From: Limisphaerales bacterium
GTDB lineage: Bacteria; Verrucomicrobiota; Verrucomicrobiia; Limisphaerales; AAA164-E04
Length of the DNA: 64,000 nt
Direction of reading: 5' to 3'
NCBI GenBank assembly: GCA_024761205.1
Contig: JAMASS010000004.1
Span: 1 to 64,000, forward strand
Part shown: positions 2,671 through 39,778 of the stretch, piece after piece
Position numbering within the stretch: the stretch's first letter is position 1
Layout: the number at the start of each line of letters is the position of its first letter
Program-made: the position numbers and the translations under genes
The notes under the pieces: model-generated
Told to the model about the DNA's origin: nothing
What the model saw: the letters and a program-made list of their open reading frames with translations, nothing else
The model's database searches: none

Positions 2671-2673
2671 AGA

Positions 2674-7112: not shown

Positions 7113-7115
7113 AGG

Positions 7116-7853: not shown

Positions 7854-8035
7854 ATTTTTGCGACAAGTCTAATCCCCCACCCATCGTCACACACCACTAG
7901 GACTTTTCCAGCCAGATCTCAACCAACCCATGTCTTGACCTCGCCTGGCACTTAGCACTTGAAACTTGGCACTCCGAATCCGCCCCGCGGCGGTTCAAAA
8001 ATCAACAATCTCTATATGCTACTCGCCATTCACCT

Positions 8036-9962: not shown

Positions 9963-10027
9963 TTTTTCTGCGAAATCAAAAAATACAAGAATTTGGGATA
10001 TTCTACAAGCGAATATAGGATGTTTGT

Positions 10028-14059: not shown

Positions 14060-14170
14060 CGACCAACGACTCTCTTCAATTCCATGATATTTATCTTTAC
14101 TCTTCGTTCTTCTCCAGTCTGCTCATCAGCCTCACTGCAACTGTCATTCAGAGCACCATCGCTTCCAAGT

Positions 14171-21560: not shown

Positions 21561-21631
21561 TTACGCTCTAGGCGGATTCCTCCGGCAATAAATGATTGGA
21601 AATGCTCCTCGGGAATCCTATGTTGCCCGGT

Positions 21632-22636
21632 ATGAAGATTCTGGTGTGTTTAGGTTTATCGGTCATTGCTGTCACCACATGGATCGGTTGTGGAGATCCC
21701 GCAGGTGGCAATAGCGGGGAGAAGGCGATCCAAATCGCAGTCATCCCTAAAGGGACGACTCACGAGTTCTGGCGGTCCATTGAAGCGGGAGTCCGCAAAG
21801 CCGAACAAGAGCTTGGCGAGCAAGGGAAGCATGTTGAGATCATTTGGAAGGGCCCTCTCAAAGAGGATGACCGCGATCAGCAGATTCAGGTAGTTGAAAA
21901 TTTCACCACGCGACGAGTCACAGGGATAGTGTTGGCGCCCTTAGACTCGAAGGCCTTGGTTCGCCCGGTGGAAACGGCGCAGAAGGCTGGTATTCCTGTG
22001 GTCATCATCGACTCGGGTTTGGAGTCTGATCAGTACGCGAGTTTTGTGGCGACCGATAATTTTGAGGGGGGGCAAATGGCGGGTGAGTTCATGACGAAGC
22101 TTTTGGAAGGAAAGGGAAATGTCATCTTGCTTCGCTATGCGGTCGGTTCGGCTAGCACTGAGAAACGCGAAGATGGTTTCCTCAATGTCTTAAAGGTGCA
22201 TCCGGAGATTAAACTCATTTCGTCGGATCAGTATGCGGGACCGACACGAGAGACTGCCTACCAAGCGTCGCAAAACTTATTGAACCGTTTCGGGAAGGAC
22301 GTCGACGGCATCTTCTGCGTGAATGAGAACTCGACGATCGGCATGACCAAGGCGTTGCGGGAGATTGGCCGAGCTGGTGGTGATGTGAAGATGGTCGGTT
22401 TCGATGCGGGATCTCAATCGATCAAGGATATGGAGAATGGAGACATACAGGGTCTTGTGGTTCAGGATCCCTTGCGGATGGGATATGAGGGCGTGATGAC
22501 GATGATGAAGTATCTGGATGGCGATGAAGTTGAGAAGCGGATTGATACGGGTGTAGTGATGGTCACACTGGAGAACATGACCGAGCCTTCGATGCATGAT
22601 CTTTTGCATCCCCCGTTCGAAAAGTATCTTAAGTAG
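21632..22636 (+). CDS. Sugar ABC transporter substrate-binding lipoprotein (RbsB-like)
   Basis: The product starts MKILVCLGL and has a lipoprotein signal peptide ending WIGC, so the mature protein would be lipid-anchored at Cys20. The body is a periplasmic-binding-protein-like fold (Peripla_BP_4): IQIAVIPKGTTHEFWRSIEA, GIVLAPLDSKALVRPVE, IPVVIIDSGLESDQYASFVA, then GIFCVNENSTIGMTKALREI. This is the ribose/galactose/inositol binder type. I chose the ATG at 21632 because it leaves a normal signal peptide; an in-frame ATG 36 bases upstream is less likely. The ATPase gene follows and then a broken permease, so the transporter as encoded here is incomplete. Confidence 0.9.
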   Translation: MKILVCLGLSVIAVTTWIGCGDPAGGNSGEKAIQIAVIPKGTTHEFWRSIEAGVRKAEQELGEQGKHVEIIWKGPLKEDDRDQQIQVVENFTTRRVTGIVLAPLDSKALVRPVETAQKAGIPVVIIDSGLESDQYASFVATDNFEGGQMAGEFMTKLLEGKGNVILLRYAVGSASTEKREDGFLNVLKVHPEIKLISSDQYAGPTRETAYQASQNLLNRFGKDVDGIFCVNENSTIGMTKALREIGRAGGDVKMVGFDAGSQSIKDMENGDIQGLVVQDPLRMGYEGVMTMMKYLDGDEVEKRIDTGVVMVTLENMTEPSMHDLLHPPFEKYLK

Positions 22637-22760
22637 TCGATTCTGCGGGTTTCCGATTCGTTCTGATTTAGGATGGATCATCATTCTGTTCTAAAGCGAT
22701 TTCCAGAGACGAGAGGGGCTGCTTGTGCCGACGAGGTAATGGAAGGTTTGACTGGATTTA

Positions 22761-24254
22761 ATGGTTGTTCCACGTTTGAGAATGAGCGGTGTCGTCAAGT
22801 CTTTTGGCGCCACTCGGGCCTTGCGTGGCGTCAGTTTTGAAGTCGCTCCGGGGGAGGTGCATACTCTGATCGGGGAGAATGGCGCGGGGAAGAGTACGCT
22901 GATGAAGGTGCTGAGCGGCGCCCACCAAGCTGATGAGGGTAGGATTGAGTTGGATGGAGAGCCGTTTCTTCCTAAGAACCCGTTGCACGCCAGAGATAGT
23001 GGCATTGCCATGATTTATCAGGAACTCAACTTGGCTCCTGATCTCTCGGTAGAGGAGAATATTCTCCTCGGGGAGGAGCCTCGGAGGTTTGGCTTGATTC
23101 GGCGGCGGATGAGTCGAGATTTGGCGCAGCAAGCACTCGAACAACTTGATCATTCGGGCCTATCGTTGGCTACTCCGGTTTATGAACTGAGTATTGCAGA
23201 ACAGCAACTGGTCGAGATCGCGCGGGCACTGACTCAGCGACCTAGGGTGCTGATCATGGACGAGCCGACTAGTAGTTTGACTCAGGTGGATGTCGAACGT
23301 TTGTTCCGAGTGATCGCTCGTTTGAAGACTCAGGGGGTTAGTATCGTCTACATCAGTCATTTTTTGGAGGAGTGCGAAAAGGTTTGTGATCGCTATACTG
23401 TACTTCGCGACGGCGAATCCGTGGGGACGGGCGAGATGGACACTACGGAGATCGACGGGATCATTCGTCTTATGGTTGGGCGTGAAATGAAGGAGATCTA
23501 TCCGAAGCTCGAACATTCCTTGGGTGCGCCAGCACTGGAGTTGGAAGGGCTTGCCGGACGGAAGAAACCGCACTCGGTTTCGCTTAAGCTACGACGTGGC
23601 GAGATTTTTGGCGTTGCCGGATTGGTCGGGGCAGGGCGAACAGAGACGTTGAGGACGTGTTTCGGGTTGGATCGACTTACCTCCGGTCGAGTTCGAGTGG
23701 CTGGGGAGGAGAGTACGGAGGGGACGCCACGACTTCGTTTACGGCAAGGGATGGGGCTTCTTAGTGAGAATCGCAAAGGGGAAGGTTTGTTACTGAACCA
23801 AAGCATTGCCAACAACCTCACTATGACTCGCTTCGAACCATTCTCAAAATTTGGTTTTATCCGTCATGCAGATCAATCACGGGCAGCGAATCAATGGATT
23901 GACCGACTCGGAGTCCGTACGTCCGGGGCTCGACAGACGATCGGAGAGTTGTCCGGCGGCAATCAGCAAAAAGTCGCGATCGGTCGCTTATTGCATCACG
24001 ACGCCGATATTTTGTTGTTCGATGAGCCCACCAGAGGCATTGACGTGGGGAGTAAAGCGCAGATTTATCAACTGGTCAATGAACTGGCCAAGCAAGGGAA
24101 AGCGATACTCTTTGTGAGCTCGTATTTGCCGGAGTTGCTCGGTGTTTGTGACACCATCGGCGTGATGTGTCGAGGGATGTTGAAAGAAGTGCGCCCAGCA
24201 GAGGGGTGGGATGAAGAGCAGATTCTGGCAGTCGCGATTGGGCAGGATGAGTGA
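22761..24254 (+). CDS. Sugar ABC transporter ATP-binding protein (RbsA/MglA-like, two ATPase domains)
   Basis: This 497-residue protein has two fused nucleotide-binding domains. Domain 1 has Walker A GENGAGKST (about residue 37), LSIAEQQLVEIARAL and Walker B VLIMDEPTSSLT. Domain 2 has the degenerate P-loop GLVGAGRTE that marks RbsA-type proteins, the signature LSGGNQQKVAIGRLL and LLFDEPTRGID. It energises uptake of a monosaccharide delivered by the binding protein upstream. The gene is intact and 18 bases from the permease pseudogene. Unless a permease elsewhere pairs with it, it has no partner. Confidence 0.93.
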   Translation: MVVPRLRMSGVVKSFGATRALRGVSFEVAPGEVHTLIGENGAGKSTLMKVLSGAHQADEGRIELDGEPFLPKNPLHARDSGIAMIYQELNLAPDLSVEENILLGEEPRRFGLIRRRMSRDLAQQALEQLDHSGLSLATPVYELSIAEQQLVEIARALTQRPRVLIMDEPTSSLTQVDVERLFRVIARLKTQGVSIVYISHFLEECEKVCDRYTVLRDGESVGTGEMDTTEIDGIIRLMVGREMKEIYPKLEHSLGAPALELEGLAGRKKPHSVSLKLRRGEIFGVAGLVGAGRTETLRTCFGLDRLTSGRVRVAGEESTEGTPRLRLRQGMGLLSENRKGEGLLLNQSIANNLTMTRFEPFSKFGFIRHADQSRAANQWIDRLGVRTSGARQTIGELSGGNQQKVAIGRLLHHDADILLFDEPTRGIDVGSKAQIYQLVNELAKQGKAILFVSSYLPELLGVCDTIGVMCRGMLKEVRPAEGWDEEQILAVAIGQDE

Positions 24255-24272
24255 GTTGTGTGAGTAGAATCT

Positions 24273-25268
24273 ATGGCGAGTGAGGCTGGCAAGGAAACGC
24301 TTCAGGGGCGGTCGGGTTTGTGGCGCTGGATCAATGTGCTCGGTCCGTTTTTGGGACTGGTCATCGTCACGGGACTATTCGCGCTGAGCGAGGAGTTACG
24401 CCCCATTTTTTTCACCGGCAGCAATGCCAAACTCATTCTGACACAAACGGTCATCGTAGTGATTGGGGCACTGGGGATGACGATGGTCATTGTGAGCGGC
24501 GGTATTGATTTGAGCGCCGGGGCCGTCGTGGCCCTGACCAGCGTGGTGGCAGCCACACTGTTGATGGAATCGGCCCGCCAACATTGGCCTTTTTATTGAC
24601 CGTGGGCAGCGGCGCTTTGATTGGATTTCTTAATGGATTGGTGATTGCCGGATTACGGATGATGCCCTTTATCGTCACTTTGGGGATGATGGGAATCGCA
24701 CGGGGAAGCGCGAAGTGGTTGGGGAACAATCAAACAGTGAACCCGGAGGACAATGCTTTGAATAAAATCATGGAACCGGTCAATCCGCTCGAACTGTTTC
24801 CTCTCCCGATGGGTGTCTGGACTGCGATTGCTCTGGCCATTGTGATGACGGTGGTCATGCGGCAGACGGTATTTGGTCGCTATATCTTTGCGATTGGTTC
24901 GAACGAGGATACGGCTCGGCTTTGTGGGATTCCAGTGCAACGACAGAAGGTGTTGATTTACACGCTGGCCGGAATGTTTTTCGGGATTGCGGGTGTGATG
25001 CAGTACTCGGTTAACCCAAGGCGATCCCACAGTAGCGATTGGGCTTGAGCTGGAGATTATTGCGGCGGTGGTGATCGGTGGTGCAAGCTTGAACGGTGGG
25101 TCGGGAAGTATCTTGGGCACCGTCATTGGGGCGCTGATCATGGCGGTTCTCAAGAGCGGTTCAAGCCAAATGAATTGGCCGACCTACATGCAAGAGATTA
25201 CCATCGGCATCGTGATTATCCTAGCAGTCGGACTGGATCGCCTCCGACAATCGCGTTTGAAGACCTAA
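24273..25268 (+). pseudogene. Sugar ABC transporter permease (RbsC-like), two frameshifts
   Basis: Three consecutive frames make one RbsC-type permease. The first (24273-24599) covers the N-terminal TMs with GALGMTMVIVSGGIDLSAGA, the family signature. The second (about 24584-25048) includes MMPFIVTLGMMGIARG and FAIGSNEDTARLCGIPV. The third (to 25268) starts GDPTVAIGLELEIIAAVVIG and carries the last TMs. Shifts lie near 24580 and near 25015. No residues appear to be missing, which suggests recent single-base indels. Sequencing errors would look the same here, but neighbouring genes carry many clear lesions. Confidence 0.88.
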
Positions 25269-25283
25269 GGCTTTTGGAGAGAA

Positions 25284-25335
25284 TGGCAGGGACTTTAGTG
25301 CCACCTTCCGGGGCCGGGGACTAAAATCCCTGTCA
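25284..25335. repeat. Imperfect inverted repeat after the transporter operon
   Basis: Two 20-base arms (25284-25303 and 25316-25335) are inverted copies with 16 of 20 positions matching. The core is CAGGGAYTTTAGT and the loop is short and GC-rich. It lies 15 bases after the permease stop and before a T-rich CTTTT. It can act as a terminator or be a REP/MITE-like element. The remaining 340 bases up to btaA hold no gene that I can see. Confidence 0.55.
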
Positions 25336-25672
25336 CGTTCTTTTAGCTGTCCCTCGGATGGTCAGATCTACTGAAAGCGTTGAATAACGTTCCCCTTCAT
25401 CGTTTCCTGATCGCCACTTCTTCTGAATTATTCTGATACAAAGCGAGTCTAAGTTAGTCTCGTCGTGATCAGCCAGGTTGTATGGTGTGCCAGTCGACGT
25501 TCTTTCCTAAATCTTGACGTCATTCTCCCTGAATCTTCGAGGATGGAGGGGATCTTGAGCTGTTTTTTTGATACTTAAACCATTTTGAATTCGGAAGAAT
25601 ATCTTTGACTGGTGGCAAGAGATGCCTCGGGTGAGTGTCTCTTAGCTGACGGTCTCTAATTAAGAGTTAGTT

Positions 25673-26763
25673 ATGCCAATTGCTGGATTGCACAATCACG
25701 TGTTCCGCCATATTCACGGTCGGAATCTTATCTATAATACTTGCTGGGAAGATCCGCGAATTGATCGTGCTCTTTTTGGGCTGGGTTCCTCAAGTGGATT
25801 GGTGACCATAACGAGTGCAGGATGTAATGTTCTCGATTACTTATTGGATCTGCCTGCGGTGTTTTTTCGGTGGACGTCAATTACCGCCGAAATACACTTC
25901 TCGCGCTGAAACGTTACTTTCTCCGATATGGCGGTTTCGAGGATTTGTTGCAGGCGTTTGGTGGGGGAGTTCATCCGAATTTCTGGAATGTCTTTGGCTC
26001 GTTTCGGCATGAGATGCCGGGAGTACCGCATTCTGGGACCGTAAGGAGAGTTTTTTTCAGGGGCCCAGCATTCGGGACTCATTCTACTTCCGCGGTGGGG
26101 CGGGCAATGTTGCCTTTCTCATTGCTCAGTATTTAAAACAGCTTGGGAACAGCTTTTGGGGAGCGGTTAGAGGAGTTCTTTCAATGCGGAGCTCTCCAAG
26201 ATCAGCGGCGGAATTATGACCTGATAGAACCCCATGTATTCAGCCGCCCGATTCGGTGGAGGTGTCGGCAACCCTTGGCAATGAGCCTTTTGGGAGTTCC
26301 TCGTTCTCAAATGGAGATAATCAAACAACAATATCCGGAAGGCGGATTGATAAACTATACCCAGGAATGCTTGAGGCGTGTTTTCACCGAAGTACTGATA
26401 CACGATAATTACTTTTGGCGAGTCTATGCGACTGGGGATTATACTAGAGAGTGCTGTCCTAATCATCTTAAGGAGGAGAATTTCGCCTTGTTGAATGAAG
26501 CTTCCGATCGGATTTACATCTCCTGTAATATCGTCAGCGGTTTCTTGCGAGCCAGGCCCAGAATCTACACGTATTATGAGTTGATGCTTCAGAATAACCG
26601 GAGGGGAACGAAAGTTCTAATGCGATCGGCGGCCTTTGAAATTGATTTCTTACCTGAGTTTCTAACCGAGCGTCTCCGTGTTTGTCCGGAACCAGCAAAC
26701 ACCCTGCATCAACAAGATCGGATCGGCGCCTGTGGGAGCGTTTTATTGGCCGAAGTCAAGTAG
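25673..26763 (+). pseudogene. btaA: BtaA-like SAM:diacylglycerol 3-amino-3-carboxypropyltransferase, frameshifted
   Basis: The N-terminus (NLIYNTCWEDPRIDRALFGL and VTITSAGCNVLDYLLD) matches the DUF3419/BtaA family, including its SAM-binding loop. It continues in a second frame (VDVNYRRNTLLALKRYFLRY), in a third (DSFYFRGGAGNVAFLIAQYL), and from 26143 in the original sense (AMSLLGVPRSQMEIIKQQYP, IHDNYFWRVYATGDYTRECC, then SCNIVSGFLRA). BtaA moves the aminocarboxypropyl group of SAM onto diacylglycerol, the first step to the betaine lipid DGTS. At least three frameshifts inactivate it. btaB follows after 1 base. Confidence 0.85.
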
Positions 26764-26764
26764 C

Positions 26765-27435
26765 GTGGGTGTTTCTGATTCGGTGGGACCCGGTTTGGCT
26801 GCGTACTATTGATGGCACGCCCGTTTCTACGATGCCACCCGTTGGGCCTTGCTTTTCGGGCGCGATCGGATGGTGCGCCTAGTTCACGATGCCATGACTC
26901 CCCAAAGGATTTTGGGGATCGGTTGTGGCACTGGGAGAAGCATGGAGCAGCTGGCACGCGTGTTCCCGGCGGCTTCGATTGCAGGATTGCATATCTCCCA
27001 CGATATGTTGTCTCGGGCTGCTCGAAGGTTGAGGCCATACGGCGAGAGAATTCAGCTTGTGGAGGGGCATACGGTGATGGCCCGTTTGCCGAGTTCTCGT
27101 TTGATCTTGTGGTTTGCGCCTATTGCCTTTCCATGATGAATCCCGGCTGGAAGAACGCCATTGCCGCCGCTTGGTCTGATCTGAGGGAAGGGGGTGTTTT
27201 CGCTGCGATTGACTTCTATGAGAGTCCAGTGGATCTGTTTCGGAGGCAGATGCAGGTGAATCATGTTGCGGTGGAGGCACACTTGCTAGGTGAGATCGAT
27301 GTCTACTTTGGCCGGACGCTCATTGAGTTTGATCGGGCCTATCTGGGACTCTGGCGTTATTCGTCTTTATCGGTCAAAAATTTCCTGTCCCACGAAACCC
27401 AGAAATGCCGATATTCGCAGATGCAGATTCATTGA
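26765..27435 (+). pseudogene. btaB: BtaB-like SAM-dependent N-methyltransferase, nonsense and frameshift
   Basis: A GTG at 26765 starts MGVSDSVGPGLAAYY, then an in-frame TGA, then WHARFYDATRWALLFGRDRM and ILGIGCGTGRSMEQLARVFP, the SAM motif I of a class I methyltransferase. Near 27095 the frame shifts and continues FDLVVCAYCLSMMNPGWKNA, LREGGVFAAIDFYESP and DVYFGRTLIEF. The FYDATRW segment and the gene order after btaA identify BtaB, which trimethylates the homoserine head group to give DGTS. Both lesions are internal, so the protein is dead. Confidence 0.83.
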
Positions 27436-27470
27436 TCGAGAATCGACCTTGACCAACTAATCGTAAGCCT

Positions 27471-28824
27471 ATGAAAAAGGATACCTCCAGTGCGGACCTG
27501 CACGTCCATAGCAATTACTCAAACCATCCCAGTGAATGGCTGCTTCGGCGAATTGGTTCTGCGGAGTGCTATGCCAATGGATGTCTATCGTCGGGCGAAA
27601 AGTAAGGGAATGGATTTTGTGACGATCTGCGGTCACAACCGAATTGATGGAGCGTTGGAGATCGCGCACTTCGAAGACACTTTTATCAGTTGTGAGGTGA
27701 CCAACCTATTTCCCGGAAGATGGGGCCAAATTTCACCTACTAGTGACAGGGGTCACGGAGGCGCAATTTGGCGAGATCGACCGGCTTCGGGAAAACATTT
27801 GCGAGCTCCTCGACTATTTGGTTCGGAAAGATATTGTGCATTCTCTGACTCATCCCTTGTTTCGAGTGAACGCGCGGGCGGGAGTGGAACATGTTGAGAA
27901 GATCTTGTTGCTCTTCAATCGCTTTGAAGGAATCAACGGCACTCGAGATCCACGGGCAGTGGACTTAGTGCGAGCCGTTTTTCGGAATTTGACTCCAGAC
28001 ATGATTTGGGGAATGGCGGAGAAGCATGGGATTGATCCGGTGGGTGAGAAACCATGGATCAAAACTTTTACCGGCGGAAGCGATGATCACGGCGGCCTTT
28101 ACATTGCGAGTGTCTACACCCGAACGCCGGAAGCTTCCTCGGCGTCTGAGTTTCTCAATCATTTGCGGGCTGGCAGCCATGAGATGGCCGGATCATCGGG
28201 CAACAGTTTGGCTTTGTCGCACAGCTTCTATCAGATTGCTCGAAATTACTACAACTAGGTGTTGAACCGCCGGTCCGACGCGCAGAAAGATTTCGTGAGT
28301 GAATTGTTCCGGCGGCTTCTTGAGCTCGTGCCAACAGTGCAGACGTCAACATTTGGCCAGCGGGTTCGTAGCGGTGTCCATGGGCTTTTTTGGCGGCTCA
28401 AAGGCCTGTTCCCACCAGACCCCGAACGAGTTTTGGCTGAGGAATTCGGTTGTTCCCACCGTTTCTGGAGGTTGTTGCGTATTTGGAGAAGCAGGAGTTC
28501 CGAGAGATCATTGTCGCGACTCCGGGGCCGATGGGCGTGTTGGCCTTGTTGTCTGCGCGATTGTTGAATATTCGTTGTTCAGTGTTGGCGCAGCCGCAGG
28601 TGCCAGACTATGTCAATCAGATGACGGACGATCCGAATTTCGAGTTGATGGCTGAAAATTACCTAGACTGGTTCTATGACCAAGCCGATCGGGTCTTTTG
28701 TCAATCACCCGCGGAGAAGCAACGATTGGTTGCGCAGGGTGTCACAGCGGAGTGCCTTGATCAGTCGGGAATCGACGATCCCTCTAAAGCTAAGGCAGCG
28801 GCTCTCGAGGCTGAAGTAGTTTAG
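27471..28824 (+). pseudogene. PHP-domain phosphoesterase fused to GT4 glycosyltransferase, degraded
   Basis: The start MKKDTSSADLHVHSNYSNHP carries the H-x-H metal motif of PHP phosphoesterases. The domain continues in a second frame (MDVYRRAKSKGMDFVTICGH) and a third (HSLTHPLFRVNARAGVEHVE, FTGGSDDHGGLYIASVYTRT). At 28256 a single TAG separates it from sequence in the same frame (DFVSELFRRLLELVPTVQTS). After another shift this leads to a GT4 N-terminal domain (IVATPGPMGVLALLSARLLN and DWFYDQADRVFCQSPAEKQR). The C-terminal GT half is missing. Same-frame continuity across the TAG suggests a former PHP-GT fusion. Two adjacent genes is the alternative, since a GTG directly follows the TAG. Confidence 0.72.
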
Positions 28825-28856
28825 TGATGAGTCATTTCTAGCGAGAGGAACGAACA

Positions 28857-29867
28857 ATGCGAATCCTCCTGGTTACAGACGCTTGGTTGCCGCAGATCAA
28901 TGGTGTCGTCACCACCTTTCGGCATCTGCGGGAAGAATTGGAGAAGCGAGGACATGAGTTTCATGTCATTCATCCCGGCCACTTTCCGAGCGTCGCCTGC
29001 CCTTTCTACACATCGTTGCGACTGGCGATTCTGGTTCGAAGGAGGCTGGCTCGATGCCTTGAGATTGCCGATTTTGACGCGTTGCATATTGCCACCGAGG
29101 GGCCCATCGGTTGGGCGGCTCGAAAGTGGTCTCTGACGCACAAAGTTCATTTCACCTCTTCCTACCACACTCAGTTTCCTCAATATTTGAAACGTTACTG
29201 CGGCTTTCCCCAGTCGCTCTCTTATTGTCTGCTGCGACGCTTTCATGCTGCTGCTCGTGAGACGCTGGTTCCGACGCTCTCGGTAAAAAACGAACTGCAG
29301 TCTCGTGGGTTTAGCCACCTGAATGTGTGGACACGAGGGGTCGACCATACCGTCTTTTGTCCGGGCAGGAAAACGGAGTTCCTGGATGTGCCGGGACCTA
29401 AATTCCTTTACTGCGGACGTGTTGCTAAGGAGAAGGGCATTGAAAAATTTCTTGAGCTTGAGCTTCCTGGAACCAAGGTTGTCGTTGGCGATGGACCGAT
29501 GTTGCCGGTGCTGAAGCGTCGGTTTCCGGAAGTGGTCTGGTCCGGATTTCAACAAGGTCAGCAGCTCGCAAGTCGCTATCGATCTGCCAATGTTTTTGTT
29601 TTTCCAAGTGAGACTGACACCTTTGGCGTGGTCATGCTAGAGGCATTGGCCAGCGGTTTGCCGGTTGCTGCTTTTCCGGTCACTGGGCCAAGGGATGTGA
29701 TTACGAGTAAGGATGTTGGTGTGCTCAATTGGGATCTCCGGGCGGCCTGCCTGCAATGTCTCAACCTTAAGTCGTCCGATGCCGCTGCGTTTGGGCGACA
29801 ATTTACTTGGGGACAGGTGGCTGAATTGTTTTTAAGGACGGTTTCCAAGTCTCAGGCCGCCAAGTAG
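28857..29867 (+). CDS. GT4-family glycosyltransferase (lipid or mannosyl type)
   Basis: This 336-residue GT-B fold enzyme starts MRILLVTDAWLPQINGVVTT, the typical opening of SqdX/MgtA/PimB-like enzymes acting on diacylglycerol or on mannose acceptors. HFTSSYHTQFPQYLKRYCGF, then VWTRGVDHTVFCPGR, FLYCGRVAKEKGIEKFLELE and FVFPSETDTFGVVMLEALAS (with the E-x7-E nucleotide-sugar motif) complete the fold. The ribosome-binding site GAGAGGA lies 8 bases before the start. It is the only intact gene of the lipid locus. A diacylglycerol acceptor is inferred from context, not shown. Confidence 0.85.
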   Translation: MRILLVTDAWLPQINGVVTTFRHLREELEKRGHEFHVIHPGHFPSVACPFYTSLRLAILVRRRLARCLEIADFDALHIATEGPIGWAARKWSLTHKVHFTSSYHTQFPQYLKRYCGFPQSLSYCLLRRFHAAARETLVPTLSVKNELQSRGFSHLNVWTRGVDHTVFCPGRKTEFLDVPGPKFLYCGRVAKEKGIEKFLELELPGTKVVVGDGPMLPVLKRRFPEVVWSGFQQGQQLASRYRSANVFVFPSETDTFGVVMLEALASGLPVAAFPVTGPRDVITSKDVGVLNWDLRAACLQCLNLKSSDAAAFGRQFTWGQVAELFLRTVSKSQAAK

Positions 29868-29929
29868 TCAGCCCCAGCGCCCTGCATCAAACGTTACCCC
29901 CGCAGTATAGGGGTGGTTAGGCCATTTTC

Positions 29930-30500
29930 GTTCAGAAAACACTACGTCGCTATGTAGCGAAGCGCGGAGACAAAAGTCGAGGAAGCGGCTCTCGAGCGGA
30001 TTCCTGGCAAATTGAGTGGTCAGCAAACAAGCCACATCCCAAGTGCCAGCCGCAAAATGGGGCAAGATCGCCAAGGAGTTGGGACAAGAACCGAAGTGCA
30101 GGGAAACACTGAACGAATAGGGGAGCAAGGCCCATTTGCTCAAGGGCGTTGTCCAGACTTATCCGTAAAGGGCGACGATTTGGCGGCTCGGGCGTTCACG
30201 ATTGAGAAACCCGAAGCGTTTCATACTTGGCGGAAATGGGTGGAGTATCTGCCTTTACAGTCAGTGGCGCTCTCTGAAGCCGGCATTGATGTGAAATCGA
30301 AGATTTTGGAGAAGTCTGAAGCTAGCAGAGCGCCTCGGTAACTACCATGATTTGGACAATCTCCGAATTTTTATGAGGGACCAACTTGAGAGTGCAGTCG
30401 ATTTCAGGACCGTGAGCCACTTCTACCAGGTCGCCAACCGGATCGAATCTCGGGCGATTCGACGTTTTCGAAAGGATTGTGATGCCATTTAATTCTACAA
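29930..30500 (+). pseudogene. CHAD-domain protein remnant
   Basis: Fragments in several frames match CHAD domains: KPEAFHTWRKWVEYLPLQSV (the H-x-x-RK-x-V-KxLRY helix) and LGNYHDLDNLRIFMRDQLES (the LGxxHDLxxLR helix), followed by NRIESRAIRRFRKDC. CHAD domains bind inorganic polyphosphate through conserved His and Lys/Arg residues. Stops and frame changes throughout show that it is dead. Its place beside the phosphorus-free lipid genes would fit a phosphate-related locus, but that is inference. Confidence 0.65.
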
Positions 30501-30581
30501 GCCCAAGGCCGTTCGCAGCGGGGGCGTTGAAGGGATTGTAGGTTGGAGGGGAAGGCTGAGGACCGGTTACCTTAAAAAGGA

Positions 30582-31352
30582 CTACATCCCCATAATCTGA
30601 TATCCTGAATCGACGTAAATGACCTGTCCTGTGATGGCGGCAGCACCGTCACTGGCTAAGAAAACGCCGGTTGCGCCCAGCTCGGCTGGGTTGACGTTCC
30701 GTTTCAAGGGCGCGTGTTTTTCGTAATGCTTCAGCATGGACGTGAATCCCGAGATGCCGCGGGCTGCGAGAGTGTTCATCGGACCGGCGCTGATGCAGTT
30801 GACCCGTATCTTCTGGGGACCGAGATCAGCGGCCAGATAACGGGTGGATGCCTCCAGTGCCGCCTTGGCGACGCCCATCACGTTATAGTTCGGCACGACT
30901 TTCGCGGCGCCGTAGTAAGATATGGCGATGATGCCGCCACCGTCAGTCATCAACGGCGCGGCTTCCCGGGTAACCGCTACCAGGGAATAGGCAGAAACAT
31001 CATGAGCGACGCGAAAGGATTCTCGATCGGTATCGACGAAGTTACCTTCGAGAGCCTGCCGCGGGGCGAAGGCGATCGAGTGCAGTAGGAGGTTCAGCTT
31101 GCCAAACTTGGCTTTGACTTGGGTGAAGACCTCAGCGATGTCTTCATCAGAGGTGACGTCACAAGGGAGCAGGAGAACATCATCGCCAAAGGTCGCAGCT
31201 AATTGCTCGACGTTTCTTTTCAAACGGTCGCCCTGGTAGGTGAATGCGAGGGTGGCGCCAGCCTCGTGCCAGGCTTGTGCGATCGCCCAGGCAATGGATC
31301 GCTTGTTGGCGACGCCAAATACCAGGCCAAGTTTTCCTTCAAGTGTCGCCAT
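30582..31352 (-). CDS. fabI: Enoyl-[acyl-carrier-protein] reductase (NADH)
   Basis: This 256-residue short-chain reductase starts MATLEGKLGLVFGVANKRSI, with the FabI-type cofactor loop G-V-A-N-x-x-S-I-A. LHSIAFAPRQALEGNFVDTD is the FabI substrate-side signature, and the catalytic pair Y-x6-K appears as YNVMGVAK with the second Tyr in ISYYGAAK. It performs the last reduction of fatty-acid elongation. I chose the ATG at 31352 because homologous sequence starts there; upstream in-frame codons back to 31526 are not FabI-like. It is intact and convergent with the CHAD remnant. Confidence 0.95.
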   Translation of the reverse strand: MATLEGKLGLVFGVANKRSIAWAIAQAWHEAGATLAFTYQGDRLKRNVEQLAATFGDDVLLLPCDVTSDEDIAEVFTQVKAKFGKLNLLLHSIAFAPRQALEGNFVDTDRESFRVAHDVSAYSLVAVTREAAPLMTDGGGIIAISYYGAAKVVPNYNVMGVAKAALEASTRYLAADLGPQKIRVNCISAGPMNTLAARGISGFTSMLKHYEKHAPLKRNVNPAELGATGVFLASDGAAAITGQVIYVDSGYQIMGM

Positions 31353-32987
31353 AGGTTCGATTTCGCTACGCACATGCCATAGGCGATTCTCTCTTTGATG
31401 GCAAGGGGTTAAACTCTTTCCGGTAAGATTCCGTTGTGAATCCAAAGCGGCGAAGAATCGTCGTATTCCATAACGTGGCGGCACTTGGTAAGGTGAACTT
31501 TGACGCGATAGCGTCCTGCTCGTCATCCGAAGCCTTGGCGAAGGATGAGCGCGCGATGAAGCATCATCACTTTCAATGATGCCTCATTCCCTCTGGAAGA
31601 CTATACCGTTTTGGGCGACGGTGCCGGTTCGCTTAGAATGTGGGGTTTTCCTGATAAAAGCCTATCTGAAATCTTTGTTTTGTTTGTTGTTTTCTTCTGT
31701 GCTGAGCGCTTCGGCGGCCAAGGTTTCGATTAATCTCAGCTTTGAACTTGGAGCTGCAAATCAAGTTCGGATTGGAACGAGCGGTGTCGGGGCATGAGTC
31801 CATGGCGGGAGTGATCGGTTGAACGACACGCTGCAACGCCTCTTGCTGGCGCATGGGCGGCGTGATGTCTTGCCGATAAATTCTGAATCGTATCAAGGCT
31901 GGAAAGTTTATGGACCAGCCGCGGAGAGAGATGCTATTGAGTCTCCAAACCGTGTTTCGGAGCGATCGATTCCACGACTACGCGCGACAGTCGACAAAGG
32001 TATCGAATGTGAGCTTTCCGGTGGATCGATAGGCTAAGGAGCGTGATCGAATTGCATTGGGATCGGACAACTTGGATGTCGTTGACACTCCGGGATTCAC
32101 CCGTGGGTCGATTAGCTATGTTGGTGCTATCAACGGATAAAAGGGCGCCTCTGCTGGAGACTTGATTTATGCAAGGGCGGGGGCGAGTTCTTTGGATCGC
32201 GTACAGTTCTCAAGACGCCATCCTAGAGGCGAATATCCGTGGCGATCATGAGTATGGGGCGCGTTTGGCAGATTTGGTTGTCAATCTGAAGAAGCTCTTC
32301 GATATGAACTTGACTCTGACCGTGTCCAGCACGCGGGCCAATCATTCGGCATCCAAATCGAGATATGAAGCGGTTAATCGAACGTGGTCAGGCAGTCTAC
32401 CGCAATTCTCAATTCCACCAACGTGCTGCACTGGTATCTCAAGGAAGATCGCATGCGGCTGTCAGGAAGAACGAATCCTTGGAAAAGGGGCGAGGATCTC
32501 AATTTGATGCCCTCCAGCACCCACCTCGCGCGCGCCCGACTGGATTCTGAGCCAATCGACGAGTCATTTTCTCGTTCCGGACGATGTCATGGCTTCTTGC
32601 TGGATTGTGGCTATCAGACGGGTGATCGATTTTGTGCTGGCCATCTCGACAAGGTGGCAGTGTTCGGTTTTCAGTTCGGGCACTTCTCGACTCTGGCACC
32701 TATTTGGTGATGGTGGATATTGAATCCGATGGCATGAATTCCCGGCAAGTGGGTTGAGGTGGTGCTTATCGTTGAGTAGATGACGAATTGGCCAGTGTGG
32801 CAGATAAAATTCGCTAATGAAACGAAGCGTTCGATGTCCCGGTATTGGGTTGTTGGCACTGCTTATTTATTTCCTCCTCGGACCATCGGTATTTGCTCAT
32901 CCTATTTCGTGGGAATTATATACTTGTGCAGACACAACAAGCTGCTAGTGGGGGCATACTGAGGGCCTAAATAACCCGGGACGAGAC
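31353..32987. other. Decayed coding region, protein not identified
   Basis: From about 31650 a signal-peptide-like start appears on the plus strand (SLFCLLFSSVLSASAAK). From 32030 to 32720 coding-like text jumps between frames: RIALGSDNLDVVDTPGFTRG, SISYVGAIN, AILEANIRGDHEYGARLADL and YLKEDRMRLSGRTN. I cannot assign a family. The pieces probably belong to one or two secreted proteins with many frameshifts. No RNA gene or element end was recognised before the transposase at 32988. Confidence 0.4.
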
Positions 32988-33838
32988 ATGGCACGCAAGG
33001 CACCCGGAAAGCCCACCGGAAGAGCATCACCCGCACCGAACTGAATACGGATGTTTTCCGACGAGAAAGCCGCCCGCCAGTGGTTCAAGCACATCCTGTG
33101 GCCAGAGGGCATCCTCTACTGTTCCGGTTGTGGCAATGACAATACGCACGAGTGCAGCCACGCCAAAATGCCCTACCGCTGCCGGGACTACCGCAAGTTT
33201 TTCAACGTCAAGACCGGAACGGTCATGGTAAATTCCCCAATCCCCCCTGATCGAGTGGGTGTGCGCCATCTATTTTGACACCGCGTCCTTCAAGGACGTT
33301 TTCAGCATGAAGATGCATCGAGATTTGGATGTCACCCAGCAGAAGACCGCATGGCGCATGCAGCAGCGCATCTGCAAGGCGTTCGCCGCGCAAGGCACCA
33401 AGGTTTTATTCGACGGCCCGGTAGAAGTGGACGAAACTTACTTCGGCGACAAGGAGCGCAATAAGCACGCGAAGGACAAGCTCAAGGCCGGTCACGGATC
33501 GGTGAGCAAGACCGCCGTGGTCAGCGCGAAGGACAGACACACCAACAAGACCGCCGCCCGAGTGGTCGAATCGACCGATCGTGCCACTTTGCCGGGATTT
33601 GTCGCGAAACACGCCACCGAGGACACGGCATACGAAGGGTTGTCGGACCACTCTGCGGTCACGCGCTCGGTGGACGAGTACGTTTCCGTTCACGTTCACA
33701 CCAACGGCGTCAGAGTCCTTTTGGTCAATGCTCAAGCGGGCGCACAAGGGCACCTTCCACAAACTCAGTTTCAAAGCACCTGCAACGCTACGTGGACAAG
33801 GCCGAGGGCGTCGAATGACTCAAGAGTTACATGAGTGA
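32988..33838 (+). mobile_element. IS1595-family (ISXO2-like) transposase, frameshifted
   Basis: The text begins MARKAPGKP and moves through three frames. The N-terminal zinc-ribbon part reads ARQWFKHILWPEGILYCSGC and CRDYRKFFNVKTGTVM. The DDE part has GPVEVDETYFGDKERNKHAK. The end reads VHTNG, then after a shift ESFWSMLKRAHKGTFHKLSF. These are the IS1595 signatures (DETYFGGKExNKH; NGIESFWSxLKRxHxGTFH). Shifts near 33020, 33235 and 33710 kill it. It abuts the N6-methylase remnant that begins at 33840. A GGGGGCATACTGA motif upstream, near 32952, may be part of the terminal repeat. Confidence 0.85.
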
Positions 33839-33839
33839 G

Positions 33840-34958
33840 TGCTCGTCTGCAAATTCGGGCTTTGGGTCGGTTCCGAGAGGCTGCCCTACGAGAAGTCGGA
33901 AGAAGGAACGATAGACGACACGTCCGACATTCCTCGGTTCGGAGTCACCTAGCCTCAATCTCCTAAATTTCATGAACTCACGCCCGCGACCGACCTCGAA
34001 GCTTTGCTTCGACGTTGTCACAATTACATCTACGTCAAATCAGGGAGTCCAGAAGGCGGAAGCATTTCACGAACTGCAAAAGCTGCTTTTCTACAAGGTG
34101 TCGGAAAGGAATGCAAATCCATCGCGGGGCAGTGTAGTCTGCTCAAAAAAAGGATCATCCCGTTGTTCGAAGAGGTCAAGGTCCGCTATCCTTACATCTT
34201 CGGAACCGGCGACTACATCAAGCTGAATCGCTGTGTCCTCGCCTACATCGTCTCCGAGTTGCAGTGGTACTCCTTGCTCAACATGCAGACGGACGTTAAG
34301 GGTCAGGCATATGAGGAATTGATGGGAGCCAATCTCCAGGGAGACCAAGGGAGTCGTCCTTCACACCGCGAAACGTCTGCGACATGACTGCTCGCATGGT
34401 GCTGTCGCTTCACTCGGACCAGAAAGTCACTTCCCTCAAGGTCTGGATTGCTGTTGCGGCACAGGTGGCTTCCTCGTTGCCACTATCAATCTTCTGCGTT
34501 AGAAGATCGTCGGTTCCGAGGAAAAAATTCGCAACTGCGCAGCGGTTCGCGTGAAGGAACTGGCGGAATGCAACCTCGTCGGCATGGACATCAATCCCTT
34601 CCTAGTAAGGACTACGCAGATGAACATCGGCATGCACGGCGACGGTTCCGTCAACCTGTTCCAGAGCAACTCCCTCGCCGCACCGAGGGAATGGGAAGAC
34701 GAAAGCGCCAAGCAGAAGGTCAAGCAGGACGTGTTCGGCATCGTCGTGACCAATCCGCCGTTCGGAGGGAAGGCGCACATAGACGATCAGCAAGTGCTTG
34801 ACCAGTTACAAACTGCCGGCGTTGGAGATGAAAGACACGCGTAACCTGATGCCAGCCGAGCAGTTGTTCATGGAGGGGGCGTTGAAGTACGTCAAACGGG
34901 GCGGCTACCTCACCATCGTCCTTCCGCAAAGCGGATGGGACGCACCCGACGCCAGATG
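33840..34958 (+). pseudogene. N6-adenine DNA methylase (HsdM-like), 5'-truncated and frameshifted
   Basis: Pieces in three frames follow an HsdM-type N-6 methylase. HELTPATDLEALLRRCHNYI and AEAFHELQKLLFYKVSERNA are the N-terminal helical domain. YIKLNRCVLAYIVSELQWYS and KGQAYEELMGANLQGD follow. FTPRNVCDMTARMVLSLHSD and DCCCGTGGFLVATINLL are SAM motif I. IVVTNPPFGGKAHI holds the catalytic NPPF. It ends around RGGYLTIVLPQSGWDAPD without the usual C-terminus. The IS1595 copy lies directly upstream. No specificity or restriction subunit is seen. Confidence 0.83.
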
Positions 34959-34959
34959 A

Positions 34960-37100
34960 ATTGGGGCGGGCTGTGTTGGAACCGGTTAATATCGCTTGGA
35001 AGGATCGGTCATAGGAAGCTTCGGCATTATCGGATGTAATTCCATTTAGTTCCCAGAAAACAGGCACGGGCTCCATTATAGGCGGCAGCGGCAGCGATAA
35101 GATCAAGAGAGGGATTACCGATTTCATTGATCAGTTCAACAAGGTTCAGGATTTCATTGATGCCAATGCGGAGTCGACAAGTGATGTCGCAGGCAAGGTG
35201 ACTTCCGGGCCTCTGCAATCCGAGAGGGAAGCGGAATCGATTGCTTCAGAAGTCAGTGAAGTTTCCTCGCTATCGAGTTTCTTAAACCCTTGAGCGATAT
35301 TGGAATTGACACGAACGGTTTCAACAATGATTTAGCAGTGAGCGGCACCGATTTGTTTGACAAGAGCCCGGTGGAGTCCCGCAGTATTGGGAAATTGTCC
35401 CTGGAGCCGGACACGTATATTGGGTTTGGCAGAACGATTGCACAGGAGAAGCGGGGACTCATTGAGACAGTTGATTTACGATATCCTGATCGCCGTCATT
35501 ATCGAGGTCGGCCAAGGCCATTTCGTGATTAATAGGTTGAGAATCGAATCCCTATTGCTGACTCGCTTCGCTGAATGTGAGATCACCTCCGTTGCGGAAC
35601 GCAGCGTTCGAAACCGTCAGCTTTGGAAAACGACTGCGAAGCTTAAGTTGCCCGGCAGGTGACAGTGATTGTCGCTGTGTCAAGGCGTCGAGTTCACGTG
35701 CGACGTCGGCGTTTTGGGCATCCCGCCAGTGACCGGTGGTAATGATAATATCTTCATAGTCATCGAGATCAACATTGATAAACGCAGGGCACCACGACCA
35801 GTCAGATGCCTTCAAGCCAGCAACCGAGCCAACTCGGCGTAATGACCGCCTTCGTGTTAGAGGAGAAGCGTGTTTCGAGGCGATTGCGGCCGCAAACTCT
35901 GCGTGTTCCGATATTGGGCGAAGCGAAGGTCGTGCCATCCATCACTTGGACCTGGCGCGCGGCATGTCGACGGCTCAACTCATCGACTACAAAAATGTCG
36001 GCCAATCCATTGCGATTGATGTCGGCCACACCGATCCTCATGGAGAAAAGGCTGGTCTGTTGAATCGCCAACTCTTCGATCGGGCGGAAGTACTCTTTGG
36101 TATCATTGATCCAGATTCGATCGAGCGATTGAAAATCGTTGCAGACATAGAGATCGGGGGAGCCGTCATCATCCAAGTCGCGAAAGATGGCGGAAAGACT
36201 CCAATCGCAGAATGAGTCTGCGGTTGGCCGGGGCGGATCCAAGAACGGCCTTGAATGCCTTGGCTTGGCAATGAACCGACCTTGCCCAGTGTTGCGAAAG
36301 AGTTGGTCTGCCTGTCCGTTCTCCAGGACACCGCTGTCACGATGAAAAGAGAATCGGCCGACGAGGTCCGGGCTGGTGACCGGGCGGCCATTGTAGGGAA
36401 CCAATTCATACACCCCATTTTTGATGCGGACATCGAATGGGCCGTTTGGTTCGTCCCGCATGGTTACGTTGCGGTAATTGACCACGTAGAGGTCCAGCCA
36501 GCCGTTGCCATCAATATCTGCCAGTGCCTTGCTGATTGGTCAGGCCCCATTGCCGGGTTTGTTCTTGAAACACCCGTTGCCGGTATTGAGGAAGAGACGC
36601 GTTCCGCAACGGATGCCATTGACAAGAAGATTGGGATCACCGTCATTGTAAACATCGGGGAAGGCAGCGTTCATAACGATATGATTGGGGAGTGACAGCC
36701 GGCTCTGTCGATCAGGTTTTCGAATTGGCCGTTCTCTTGGTTTTGCCACAATTGGTTGGTCCCGAGTTGAGTAGTGAAATAGCAGTCCGGAGAACCGTCG
36801 CCACATCCCGCGAGAGCCAAGCCATTATCGTGGTCGTAGTGGGCCGCTTTGTAGGTTGATGCCTGCATCATCCACGATGTTGTGGTGAAACTGGATGCCG
36901 CTGTCCATAATACGATCGGCAAACTGGAAGTCACAGCTGGTGCTGATGCCTTGCGCCAGGTGCTTTTGAGCTTCTTTCCGGATGGCGAGTTGCTTTAGCG
37001 CGTAGGTGCATTCTGGTGAAGTGGCCGCCACATGGACGGACTCCATCAAGTGCGATCCGACTGTCCTGCATAGGGCGAGAAGGGTTACGGCAGCGGTTCC
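34960..37100 (-). pseudogene. VCBS/FG-GAP repeat protein with ASPIC/UnbV domain, degraded
   Basis: The minus strand carries a long secreted repeat protein in pieces. Near 36900 it reads DSGIQFHHNIVDD. Repeats follow with Asp-rich calcium loops: LADIDGNGWLDLYVVNYRN, FRDLDDDGSPDLYVCNDFQS, VADINRNGLADIFVVDELS, FINVDLDDYEDIIITTGHW and ADLDNDGDQDIV. A C-terminal ASPIC/UnbV piece reads CNRSAKPNIRVRLQGQFPNT. The longest frame is 35802-36485. Several stops and shifts break the gene. Such CRTAC1-like proteins are extracellular and common in Planctomycetes and Verrucomicrobia. The right-hand 5' limit and the left-hand junction with the methylase remnant are approximate. Confidence 0.82.
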
Positions 37101-37184
37101 AAACGTCGTTCGAAGGAAAGGACTTATTGGTGTGGCACACAACAATAGGGCGATATGATTGAGCGAATATGACAGTAGCCTAGG

Positions 37185-37224
37185 CCCCAAAAAGACCGGA
37201 CAAGATATCCTGTCTTTTTTGGGG
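37185..37224. repeat. Near-palindromic 40-bp hairpin
   Basis: CCCCAAAAAGAC and GTCTTTTTTGGGG flank a GATATC-centred middle, giving an almost continuous stem. It lies about 65 bases before the IS1595 remnant. It resembles a bidirectional terminator or an element end that shields a transposase from read-through; which of these it is cannot be settled here. Confidence 0.55.
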
Positions 37225-37290
37225 GGAAATTACATACTTTCACTAGCCGGGGGGCAAGTATATTTAAGGGTGGCGTCGGTAGAAAGGCAA

Positions 37291-37683
37291 GTTATGGACC
37301 AGACGGGAAAGATACAGACACTGAGCATCAGGCAATTCTTCCGGAGGTTTCCTGATGAAGTGGTTGCTGTTGGCCTATCTGGAAGCAAAGCGGTGGCCTG
37401 TGGCTGGTCGTGTCCGGGCGTTCCCGGTGCGTGAGACCACCAAGGACACTTTACAATCCACCATTAGAGAAAACGTCCGGCGCGGCTCGTGGCTCTACAC
37501 CGACGCTTACTCTGCCTATTGCGGCTTGATCGCCTATGAACATGAGGCGGTATCTCACTACACGGGCGAATATGTCCGAGGGCAAGCTCATACCAATTCC
37601 ATTGAATCCTTTTGGGCCTTGCTCAAGCGGGGGATTTATGGCACCTTTCACCACATCAGTCCGAAATATCTGCACCACACATG
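37291..37683 (+). mobile_element. IS1595-family transposase remnant with internal deletion
   Basis: A short N-terminal piece (MDQTGKIQTLSIRQFFRRFP) is followed within 20 codons, in another frame, by the C-terminal catalytic part: VRETTKDTLQSTIRENVRRG, LYTDAYSAYCGLIAYEHEA and RGQAHTNSIESFWALLKRGI. The family is the same as the copy at 32988, but the sequences differ enough to be a separate element. The whole middle, including the DETYFGGKE block, is deleted. The end (KYLHH) is cut at the point where the AT-rich RM island begins. Confidence 0.82.
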
Positions 37684-37863
37684 AAAGACAACCCTTACTA
37701 TGAAAAGTTCGAGAAATTATCTAAAGCACTCGTGCACCCCATCCCTAACAAGAAGCATCGAATCCGGCGGTCATTAAACAGACACCAGCCACAATCTCGC
37801 ATGAACGACTTGTTCAAAGCCATGCCTGACAAAACTGTTACCTTCGAGGAATTGATTGCATGA
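37681..37863 (+). CDS. Small basic protein preceding the methyltransferase, function unknown
   Basis: This 60-residue ORF starts MKDNPYYEKFEKLSKALVHP, contains a basic middle (KKHRIRRSLNRH) and ends KTVTFEELIA. Its stop overlaps the methyltransferase start (ATGA), so the two are translationally coupled. I do not recognise the sequence and see no helix-turn-helix. It could be a small regulator or an antitoxin-like accessory of the RM cassette, or the truncated tail of a gene cut by the IS junction. Base composition is AT-rich like the next two genes. Confidence 0.5.
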   Translation: MKDNPYYEKFEKLSKALVHPIPNKKHRIRRSLNRHQPQSRMNDLFKAMPDKTVTFEELIA

Positions 37864-38696
37864 GCGCAGTAATGAAACAGATTGCTGAAGAAAAAACGGC
37901 AATCGTTTATGAAGGTGATTGCCTTAAAATTATTCCACAAAAGATACCTGCTAATACTGTCGATCTGATTGTTACCTCACCGCCATATGCAGACCAAAGA
38001 AAAGACAATTATGGTGGCGTGTGTGCAGATGAATACGTGGAGTGGATGTTGCCAAGAACCGAAGAATTGAAAAAGTGTTTGAAACCAACAGGGTCATTTG
38101 TGCTAAACATTAAGGAGCGAGCCATTAACGGCGAACGCCATCCGTATGTAATAGAACTGATACAGGGAATGAGAACTCAAGGCTGGCGCTGGGTTGAAGA
38201 GTATTGCTGGCATAAGAAAAACTGTTATCCAGGGAGGTGGCCTAATAGATTCAGGGATTCGTGGGAACGTCTACTACATTTCACAAAAGAAAAGAGATTC
38301 AAAATGAATCAGGATGCTGTGATGGTGCCAATGGGTGATTGGAAGGAAGCACGATTAAAGCATCTATCGAAAACAGATATGAAGCGCGATAATAGTGCTC
38401 ATGGTAACGGCTTTGGCAAACGTATCGCTAATTGGCAAGGCAGGAAACTTGCTTATCCTACAAATGTTCTTCATATGGCAACAGAGTGTAATAACTCTGG
38501 TCATCCAGCAGCATTCCCTGAAAAGCTGCCTAATTGGTTTATCCGTTTGTTTACCGATTCTGGCGACTTGGTATTAGACCCTTTTGCGGGGGGGGCAACA
38601 CTTATAGCCGCGAGGAAACTTGGCAGAGCATCGATTGGGATAGACTTGTCGAGCGAGTATTGCGACTTAATGCGGGAAAGGCTTGGTATCCGATGA
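37860..38696 (+). CDS. Type II DNA methyltransferase, beta class (N4-cytosine or N6-adenine)
   Basis: This 278-residue enzyme has the catalytic motif near the N-terminus (VDLIVTSPPYADQRKDNYGG, TSPPY at about residue 40) and the SAM-binding motif near the C-terminus (DSGDLVLDPFAGGATLIAAR). This order defines beta-class amino-methyltransferases. TSPPY is seen in both N4-cytosine and N6-adenine enzymes, so the target base is open. It is intact, of normal length, and clearly AT-richer than flanking genes. Its stop overlaps the endonuclease start (ATGA), giving a compact methylase-endonuclease operon. Confidence 0.93.
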   Translation: MSAVMKQIAEEKTAIVYEGDCLKIIPQKIPANTVDLIVTSPPYADQRKDNYGGVCADEYVEWMLPRTEELKKCLKPTGSFVLNIKERAINGERHPYVIELIQGMRTQGWRWVEEYCWHKKNCYPGRWPNRFRDSWERLLHFTKEKRFKMNQDAVMVPMGDWKEARLKHLSKTDMKRDNSAHGNGFGKRIANWQGRKLAYPTNVLHMATECNNSGHPAAFPEKLPNWFIRLFTDSGDLVLDPFAGGATLIAARKLGRASIGIDLSSEYCDLMRERLGIR

Positions 38697-39421: not shown

Positions 39422-39454
39422 CATGAGCCAAAAGCAACAAAAAACTTAAGGGTT

Positions 39455-39778
39455 GCCTATGTTTATGAATCGTGATTTTGGCTACATTGGGGATGTTGTG
39501 GAATTGACGATACGAGCGGTTGAAACGCTTGCAAGTCGGATGTACAACTGTGGCAGTGGCGTTTTCATTCAGCGAGGTTATCGAGATTTTGAATAAGGCA
39601 AGGTACGGAATATGCTGGCGAATATTTTGAGAATCCACATGACTTTTACCAACCTCATACGGAAGCGGATATGGAACGTGCGAACGCTGAATTGTCCTTC
39701 ACACTAGCCTATTCGCCGGAGAAGAGGATTCGTGAATATGTGGGACAGCATCCAAATGAATGTGTAGTTGATGGCTGA
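39455..39778 (+). pseudogene. NAD-dependent heptose/sugar epimerase (HldD-like), C-terminal fragment
   Basis: The text FGYIGDVVELTIRAVETLAS followed by RMYNCGSG and, in other frames, EVIEILNKARYG and ENPHDFYQPHTEADMERANA, then YSPEKRIREYVGQHP, matches the last third of ADP-glyceromanno-heptose-6-epimerase-like enzymes. The NAD-binding N-terminus and catalytic Y-x3-K are absent because the AT-rich RM island begins immediately upstream. At least one frameshift is also present. The stop overlaps the start of the AsmA-like gene by 8 bases, so the epimerase was probably upstream in the same operon. Confidence 0.75.

What the first reader, a model, noticed from the sequence alone, without database searches (positions are those of the whole stretch)
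25673..30500. Candidate phosphorus-free membrane-lipid locus: btaA, btaB, PHP-GT, GT4 and CHAD, mostly dead
Seen: BtaA- and BtaB-like sequence, then a PHP-phosphoesterase joined to a GT4 half, an intact GT4 with a lipid-type N-terminus, and CHAD fragments, all on one strand without other genes between. Known: BtaA/BtaB make the betaine lipid DGTS from diacylglycerol, GT4 enzymes can glycosylate diacylglycerol under phosphate stress, and CHAD binds polyphosphate. Inference: the PHP enzyme supplied diacylglycerol (for example by dephosphorylating phosphatidate), feeding both betaine and glycolipid branches. If intact versions exist in relatives, this would be a combined replacement-lipid operon. 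All but the GT4 are broken here.
Basis: partly seen in the sequence, partly recalled or inferred. Interest (0 to 1): 0.68.

Follow-up and report, generated by a model that had tools for sequence, protein, structure and literature searches.

The report
Decayed operon for phosphorus-free membrane lipids
This stretch is the decayed remains of a real bacterial gene set for swapping phosphate-containing membrane lipids for phosphate-free ones; an intact relative suggests that an enzyme of an unrelated family may take the place of the usual phospholipid-cutting enzyme.

Summary
btaA, btaB and a PHP phosphoesterase with half a glycosyltransferase lie here as pseudogenes (9 frameshifts, an internal stop, large deletions). 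The next gene, a GT4, is intact. The CHAD gene was not confirmed. One genome of the same family but another genus (G004) carries btaA-btaB-PHP-GT4 intact and in the same order, next to a PhoX phosphatase gene. The GT4 has the marks of Agt/GTcp, diacylglycerol glycosyltransferases used under phosphate starvation. The missing glycosyltransferase half is inherited, not damage: G004 and two loci from sulfate-reducer-type bacteria share it, and the PHP and GT4 trees agree. Elsewhere btaA and agt genes often sit beside plcP, the phospholipase C that supplies diacylglycerol; here PHP fills that slot, and no PlcP was found in 11 genomes of the family, although 94 of 288 phylum genomes match. Best reading: a lipid-remodelling operon in which a PHP enzyme stands in for PlcP, intact in G004 and being lost here. 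The four-gene order is known from two genera only, and the PHP reaction is inferred, not shown.

The parts
25673..26763 (+). btaA pseudogene (PF11899, betaine-lipid synthesis, first step): 3 frameshifts, 21 codons missing
   Evidence: 43% identical to intact G004 BtaA
26795..27435 (+). btaB pseudogene (SAM methyltransferase): 2 frameshifts, TGA at 26810
   Evidence: 41% identical to intact G004 BtaB
27471..28824 (+). PHP phosphoesterase plus N-terminal half of a GT4, pseudogene: 4 frameshifts, stop at 28256-28258, about 160 codons missing near 28367-28449; invariant metal-site Asp read as Gly at 27631-27633
   Evidence: 58% identical to the intact 628-aa G004 protein, which also lacks the C-terminal GT half
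28857..29867 (+). intact GT4 of the Agt/GTcp type (predicted diacylglycerol glycosyltransferase), 336 aa
29868..30500 (+). claimed CHAD fragments: not confirmed, no family match

Best explanation
The locus is a decaying operon for phosphorus-free lipids. In the working form (G004) a PHP-family phosphoesterase would release diacylglycerol from a phosphorus-containing glycerolipid and so free phosphate; BtaA and BtaB would turn diacylglycerol into the betaine lipid DGTS; the Agt-type GT4 would turn it into glucosyl- or glucuronosyl-diacylglycerol. The PHP protein fills the slot that PlcP holds in other bacteria. Its ancestor was a PHP-GT4 fusion that lost its own transferase half, the sugar step being left to the neighbouring Agt. 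Shown here: gene content, order, homology, an intact copy, the shared truncation, no detected PlcP. Inferred: the substrate of PHP, the products, control by phosphate. In this genome all but the GT4 is broken.
For: Intact same-order copy in G004 with PhoX next to it. GT4 keeps the catalytic and diacylglycerol-binding residues reported for GTcp (against PMC8231724) and groups with alphaproteobacterial GT4s that directly follow a PlcP-type gene. PlcP lies within 3 kb of btaA in 12 loci of the phylum, matches in 94 of 288 phylum genomes and in none of 11 genomes of the family. Short PHP and GT4 form matching clades across phyla. Phosphate genes near short PHP in G004, L156, L199. An 830-aa family occurs beside both PHP-GT4 and plcP-btaAB. 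PHP fold with all metal motifs in intact relatives.
Against: Only one intact four-gene copy. PHP-GT and btaA do not go together across the phylum. Full-length PHP-GT often neighbours a DUF2334 deacetylase and gpgSDF-like genes. No PHP enzyme acting on phospholipids was found in the papers searched. No Pho box detected. Most PlcP loci still have btaA without PHP, so the slot argument is by analogy.
Confidence: 0.55

Rival explanations
1. Same lipid operon, but the PHP protein does not make diacylglycerol. It acts on something else (a sugar phosphate, a head-group phosphate or the glycolipid itself) or, with its dead transferase half, as partner or regulator of the GT4; diacylglycerol comes from ordinary phosphatidate phosphatases.
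For: The dead GT half is kept with conserved sequence in G004, L156 and L166, which suggests a binding role. Full-length PHP-GT goes with amino-sugar lipid genes where diacylglycerol is not the obvious acceptor (PMC12713373). Nearest folds are PHP enzymes with varied substrates, such as RNase AM and PsfC.
Against: The PHP gene stands in plcP's slot and no PlcP was detected in the family.
Confidence: 0.33
2. PHP and GT4 belong to polysaccharide or LPS synthesis and stand beside btaAB by chance.
For: PHP-GT is scattered and rarely near btaA outside this family. GT4 enzymes are common in polysaccharide loci.
Against: Same order kept in two genera whose GT4s are only 56% identical; GT4 is of the plcP-linked type; neighbours are phosphate and phospholipid genes (DgkA, Psd, PhoX, PhoR-PhoU-PhoB), not capsule genes.
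Confidence: 0.06
3. The genes are not dead: the frameshifts are sequencing or assembly errors and the operon works in this organism.
For: The genome is a 92-contig assembly and other genes of the window are interrupted too.
Against: Large internal deletions, a changed invariant metal-site Asp, and a clean 1-kb GT4 next door; the genome is judged 95% complete and housekeeping genes at 40-48 kb are intact.
Confidence: 0.06

Closest known systems
plcP-btaAB and plcP-agt phosphate-stress lipid remodelling operons (PMC4796936, PMC9239053)
   Same: btaA, btaB and an Agt-type GT4 in one operon with a phosphoesterase; phosphate genes near
   Different: The phosphoesterase is a PHP-family protein with a dead GT half, not the calcineurin-like PlcP; both betaine-lipid and glycolipid branches are in one run
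Agt of Agrobacterium and GTcp of Pelagibacter (GT4 lipid glycosyltransferases, PMC8231724)
   Same: Length, H and D of the catalytic pair, FPSxTDTFG, TR pair, C-terminal Trp
   Different: GRVAxEKN reads GRVAKEKG in the window; upstream gene is PHP, not plcP
Full-length PHP-GT4 fusion proteins of Kiritimatiellae, Chthoniobacterales and Phycisphaerae (about 800 aa)
   Same: PHP domain, linker and N-terminal GT half are homologous end to end
   Different: C-terminal GT domain and GT motifs lost; neighbours are btaAB and Agt instead of DUF2334 or gpgSDF-like genes
gpgSDF operon for glucosaminyl phosphatidylglycerol (PMC12713373)
   Same: Lipid GT4; its parts neighbour full-length PHP-GT in Kiritimatiellae
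   Different: No deacetylase or flippase at the window or in G004
PHP phosphoesterases (RNase AM 7ug9, PsfC 7rty, 3e38)
   Same: Fold of residues 1-258 of the short PHP protein (Z 13.7 to 16.5, rmsd 2.9 to 3.2, 181 to 208 aligned)
   Different: Here joined to a GT-B half and paired with a lipid glycosyltransferase; substrate unknown

Membership tests
plcP-type lipid remodelling operon | PlcP (calcineurin-like phospholipase C) in the operon or genome | tested here: not met
   No match in 11 family genomes, while the same query matches 94 of 288 phylum genomes; the gene in its place is PHP
plcP-type lipid remodelling operon | btaA/btaB or agt beside the phosphoesterase gene | tested here: met
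   G004 intact; window remnants
plcP-type lipid remodelling operon | induction by low phosphate | not testable with these tools
   PhoX and Pho regulators nearby in relatives; no E. coli-type Pho box found
Agt/GTcp group of GT4 | catalytic His and Asp, FPSxTDTFG, Thr-Arg pair, C-terminal Trp | tested here: met
   residues from PMC8231724
Agt/GTcp group of GT4 | GRVAxEKN motif | tested here: inconclusive
   window GRVAKEKG, G004 GRVAREKN
Agt/GTcp group of GT4 | grouping with plcP-linked GT4s rather than GpgS | tested here: met
   tree, 100/100 split from GpgS-like rows; characterised Agt itself was not in the tree
Agt/GTcp group of GT4 | glycosylation of diacylglycerol | not testable with these tools
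   needs an assay
BtaA (PF11899) | profile match over the cut-off | tested here: met
   113 bits, cut-off 28.2
BtaA (PF11899) | intact reading frame | tested here: not met
   3 frameshifts and 21 codons missing in the window; intact in G004
PHP phosphoesterase | PHP fold and metal motifs (HxH, DHN, E, H, SDDH) | tested here: met
   invariant or nearly so in 36 relatives, fold; in the window the Asp of DHN reads Gly
CHAD (PF05235) | profile match at 29868-30500 | tested here: not met
   none at E<=1

The most novel reading that the evidence does not exclude
A PHP-family phosphoesterase, born from a PHP-glycosyltransferase fusion, is a second and unrelated solution to PlcP's job: releasing diacylglycerol from phospholipids during phosphate starvation, in Verrucomicrobiota and some sulfate-reducer-type bacteria, perhaps also in Planctomycetota.
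Probability: 0.42. Interest if true: 0.72.

Novelty: new variant of a known kind. Interest (0 to 1): 0.52.

Why it matters
PlcP is used as the marker of lipid remodelling, and groups without it, such as verrucomicrobial methanotrophs, are taken to lack that pathway (PMC9239053). If a PHP enzyme can do the same job, that marker misses cases, and the widespread PHP-GT4 fusion proteins of unknown function gain a testable role. The PHP-GT4 pair also occurs in a closed Planctomycetes genome and in Desulfobulbaceae, so it can be tested without this decayed copy.

Tried and rejected
CHAD: Pfam, whole-genome profile search and PDB search gave nothing at the place. E. coli-type Pho boxes upstream of btaA, PHP or PhoX: best scores no better than shuffles. 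PHP-GT and btaA as a phylum-wide pair: 7 shared genomes against about 5 expected, never on one contig outside this family. Solved relatives of the short PHP protein by sequence: none; only the fold shows them. NCBIfam models for the GT4: lipid-GT models are among the best, but far below their cut-offs. A search of Desulfobacterota for more PHP-GT4 pairs was not possible with the tool, which takes only genome handles as centre. Sequencing error as the cause of the lesions was considered and rated unlikely.

Full report
What is there. The window is part of contig C34 of a 4.9-Mb, 92-contig genome judged 95% complete. Genomes of the same phylum have contigs of exactly the lengths of named Kiritimatiellaeota, Pontiellaceae and Spartobacteria records, so the host is taken to be Verrucomicrobiota in the GTDB sense; this is inference. 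At 25673-29867 on the + strand lie, in order, a btaA remnant, a btaB remnant, a PHP-GT remnant and an intact GT4. Pfam confirms PF11899, methyltransferase, a weak PHP_C, a GT4 N-terminal half and a full GT4. Against the intact G004 proteins, a frame-aware alignment counts 9 frameshifts, 1 stop and about 21 and 160 missing codons in the first three genes (2.9 kb aligned) and no lesion in the 1-kb GT4. At the same rate about 3.5 lesions would be expected in the GT4; the chance of none is about 0.03 by my own Poisson arithmetic, so retention of the GT4 is suggested, not proven. The CHAD reading of 29868-30500 is not supported.

Intact relatives. Of 11 genomes of the family, only this one and G004, of another genus, have bona fide btaA. 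G008, a one-contig genome of the window's genus, has only a distant DUF3419 protein and no PHP-GT. G004 contig C4 (locus L034) carries btaA (404 aa), btaB (226 aa), PHP-GT (628 aa) and GT4 (356 aa) intact, in the same order and strand, with gaps or overlaps of 7 to 14 bases; a PhoX alkaline phosphatase gene converges on the GT4 and a PhoH-type gene lies further on. So the locus is a plausible working operon in this family and is being lost in the window's genus.

The GT half. Full-length homologues have about 800 aa: PHP, helical linker, complete glycosyltransferase. The G004 protein ends at 628 aa and has lost the GT motifs (WxTDTFxDVNGV reads AIMMDPVTDLHDR; IYHTDFP reads VLAQCNMS); the window has the same end and VLAQPQVPD. 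L156 (Candidatus Anaeroferrophillacea) and L166 (Desulfobulbaceae) also have a short form of 613-617 aa directly followed by the same GT4. The four short forms are one clade (SH-aLRT 98) and the GT4s show the same grouping (91/92); Phycisphaerae pairs of full PHP-GT plus GT4 (L152, L159, L160, L215) fall outside. L153, also short but without this GT4, is the next branch. So the half GT is an inherited state, and PHP and GT4 travel together, probably also between phyla. A model of the L156 protein (pLDDT 82.9, pTM 0.82) has a PHP domain at 1-258 and a GT-B N-terminal domain at 424-612.

The GT4. It keeps the catalytic His and Asp, FPSETDTFG, the Thr-Arg pair, the NGVV and TEGP loops and the C-terminal Trp, the residues reported for UDP-sugar and diacylglycerol binding in GTcp of Pelagibacter (PMC8231724). 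A model of the window protein is a complete GT-B fold, pLDDT 86; phosphatidylinositol mannosyltransferase PimA is among many tied GT4 matches (Z 28.4, rmsd 3.1, 312 aligned). Alphaproteobacterial relatives in Sphingomonas and Roseomonas (49% and 45% identical to the G004 GT4) lie directly behind a gene annotated UDP-2,3-diacylglucosamine diphosphatase. It has the Metallophos domain and, from its place beside agt, is read here as plcP, as described for plcP-agt operons (PMC4796936, PMC9239053).

The slot argument. With the Sphingomonas PlcP as query, 12 btaA loci of this phylum have PlcP within 3 kb of btaA, directly adjoining in L243, L250 and L251. PlcP matches in 94 of 288 phylum genomes but in none of 11 genomes of the window's family. 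At the window and G004 locus the PHP gene stands where a plcP might be expected. An 830-aa protein family without Pfam match lies beside PHP-GT4 in L156 and L166, beside full PHP-GT in L171 and beside plcP-btaAB in L243, which links the two arrangements. Phosphate genes are close in several loci: PhoX (G004), PhoR-PhoU-PhoB-PhoH (L156), exopolyphosphatase-PhoB-PhoR (L199), PhoB and PhoU (L168, L171).

Grounds for caution. Full-length PHP-GT is found in 49 of 387 phylum genomes and btaA in 40; 7 genomes have both against about 5 expected, and outside this family they lie on different contigs. In 41 of 80 named loci a DUF2334 deacetylase stands near PHP-GT, mostly directly upstream; Kiritimatiellae add a GpgS-like GT4 and a flippase-like protein, the parts of the gpgSDF operon for glucosaminyl phosphatidylglycerol (PMC12713373). 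PHP thus goes with lipid glycosylation widely, but not always with diacylglycerol glycolipids, and what its PHP domain cuts is unknown.

Verdict. A combined betaine-lipid and glycolipid operon is supported by one intact copy, the nature of the GT4, phosphate context and the plcP comparison. That PHP supplies diacylglycerol is the most economical reading and remains untested. It works like plcP-type remodelling; it is not filed as a member because plcP itself is absent.

Noticed in passing
L184-L231 (41 of 80 loci), L106, L114, L134, L163, L170: Full-length PHP-GT4 fusions stand next to a DUF2334 deacetylase, and in Kiritimatiellae also next to a GpgS-like GT4 and a flippase-like gene: they may belong to amino-sugar phospholipid synthesis.
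   Followed up: partly
L156:13748-16249, L166:3121-5556, L171:7646-9697, L243:67-1635: An 811-834-aa protein family without Pfam match lies beside PHP-GT4 pairs and beside plcP-btaAB; in three of the loci a phosphatidylserine decarboxylase gene adjoins it.
   Followed up: partly
window 21596-25268; L035:11765-13950, L036, L240:1217-4501: Orthologues of the same sugar ABC transporter (54-71% identical binding protein) lie within a few kb of btaA in four loci of different families.
   Followed up: partly
window 1-16000 and 24000-40000: Low coverage by long frames (11-47% per 8 kb, against 70-90% in relatives): the genome region looks rich in pseudogenes.
   Followed up: partly
window 24273-25268 and 33051-33834: The ABC transporter permease and a transposase-like gene are also split into several frames.
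   Followed up: no
G000:C37:20408-20983 (L236): The only CHAD-type gene found in this genome is interrupted by a TAG.
   Followed up: no
L199:9953-16207 (Holophagales): A separately shortened PHP protein (610 aa) is followed on the same strand by exopolyphosphatase, PhoB-like and PhoR-like genes, without a GT4.
   Followed up: partly
L037:8334-9488 and L042:10346-11518: In family f7, btaA is followed not by a recognisable btaB but by an unidentified 384-390-aa gene.
   Followed up: no
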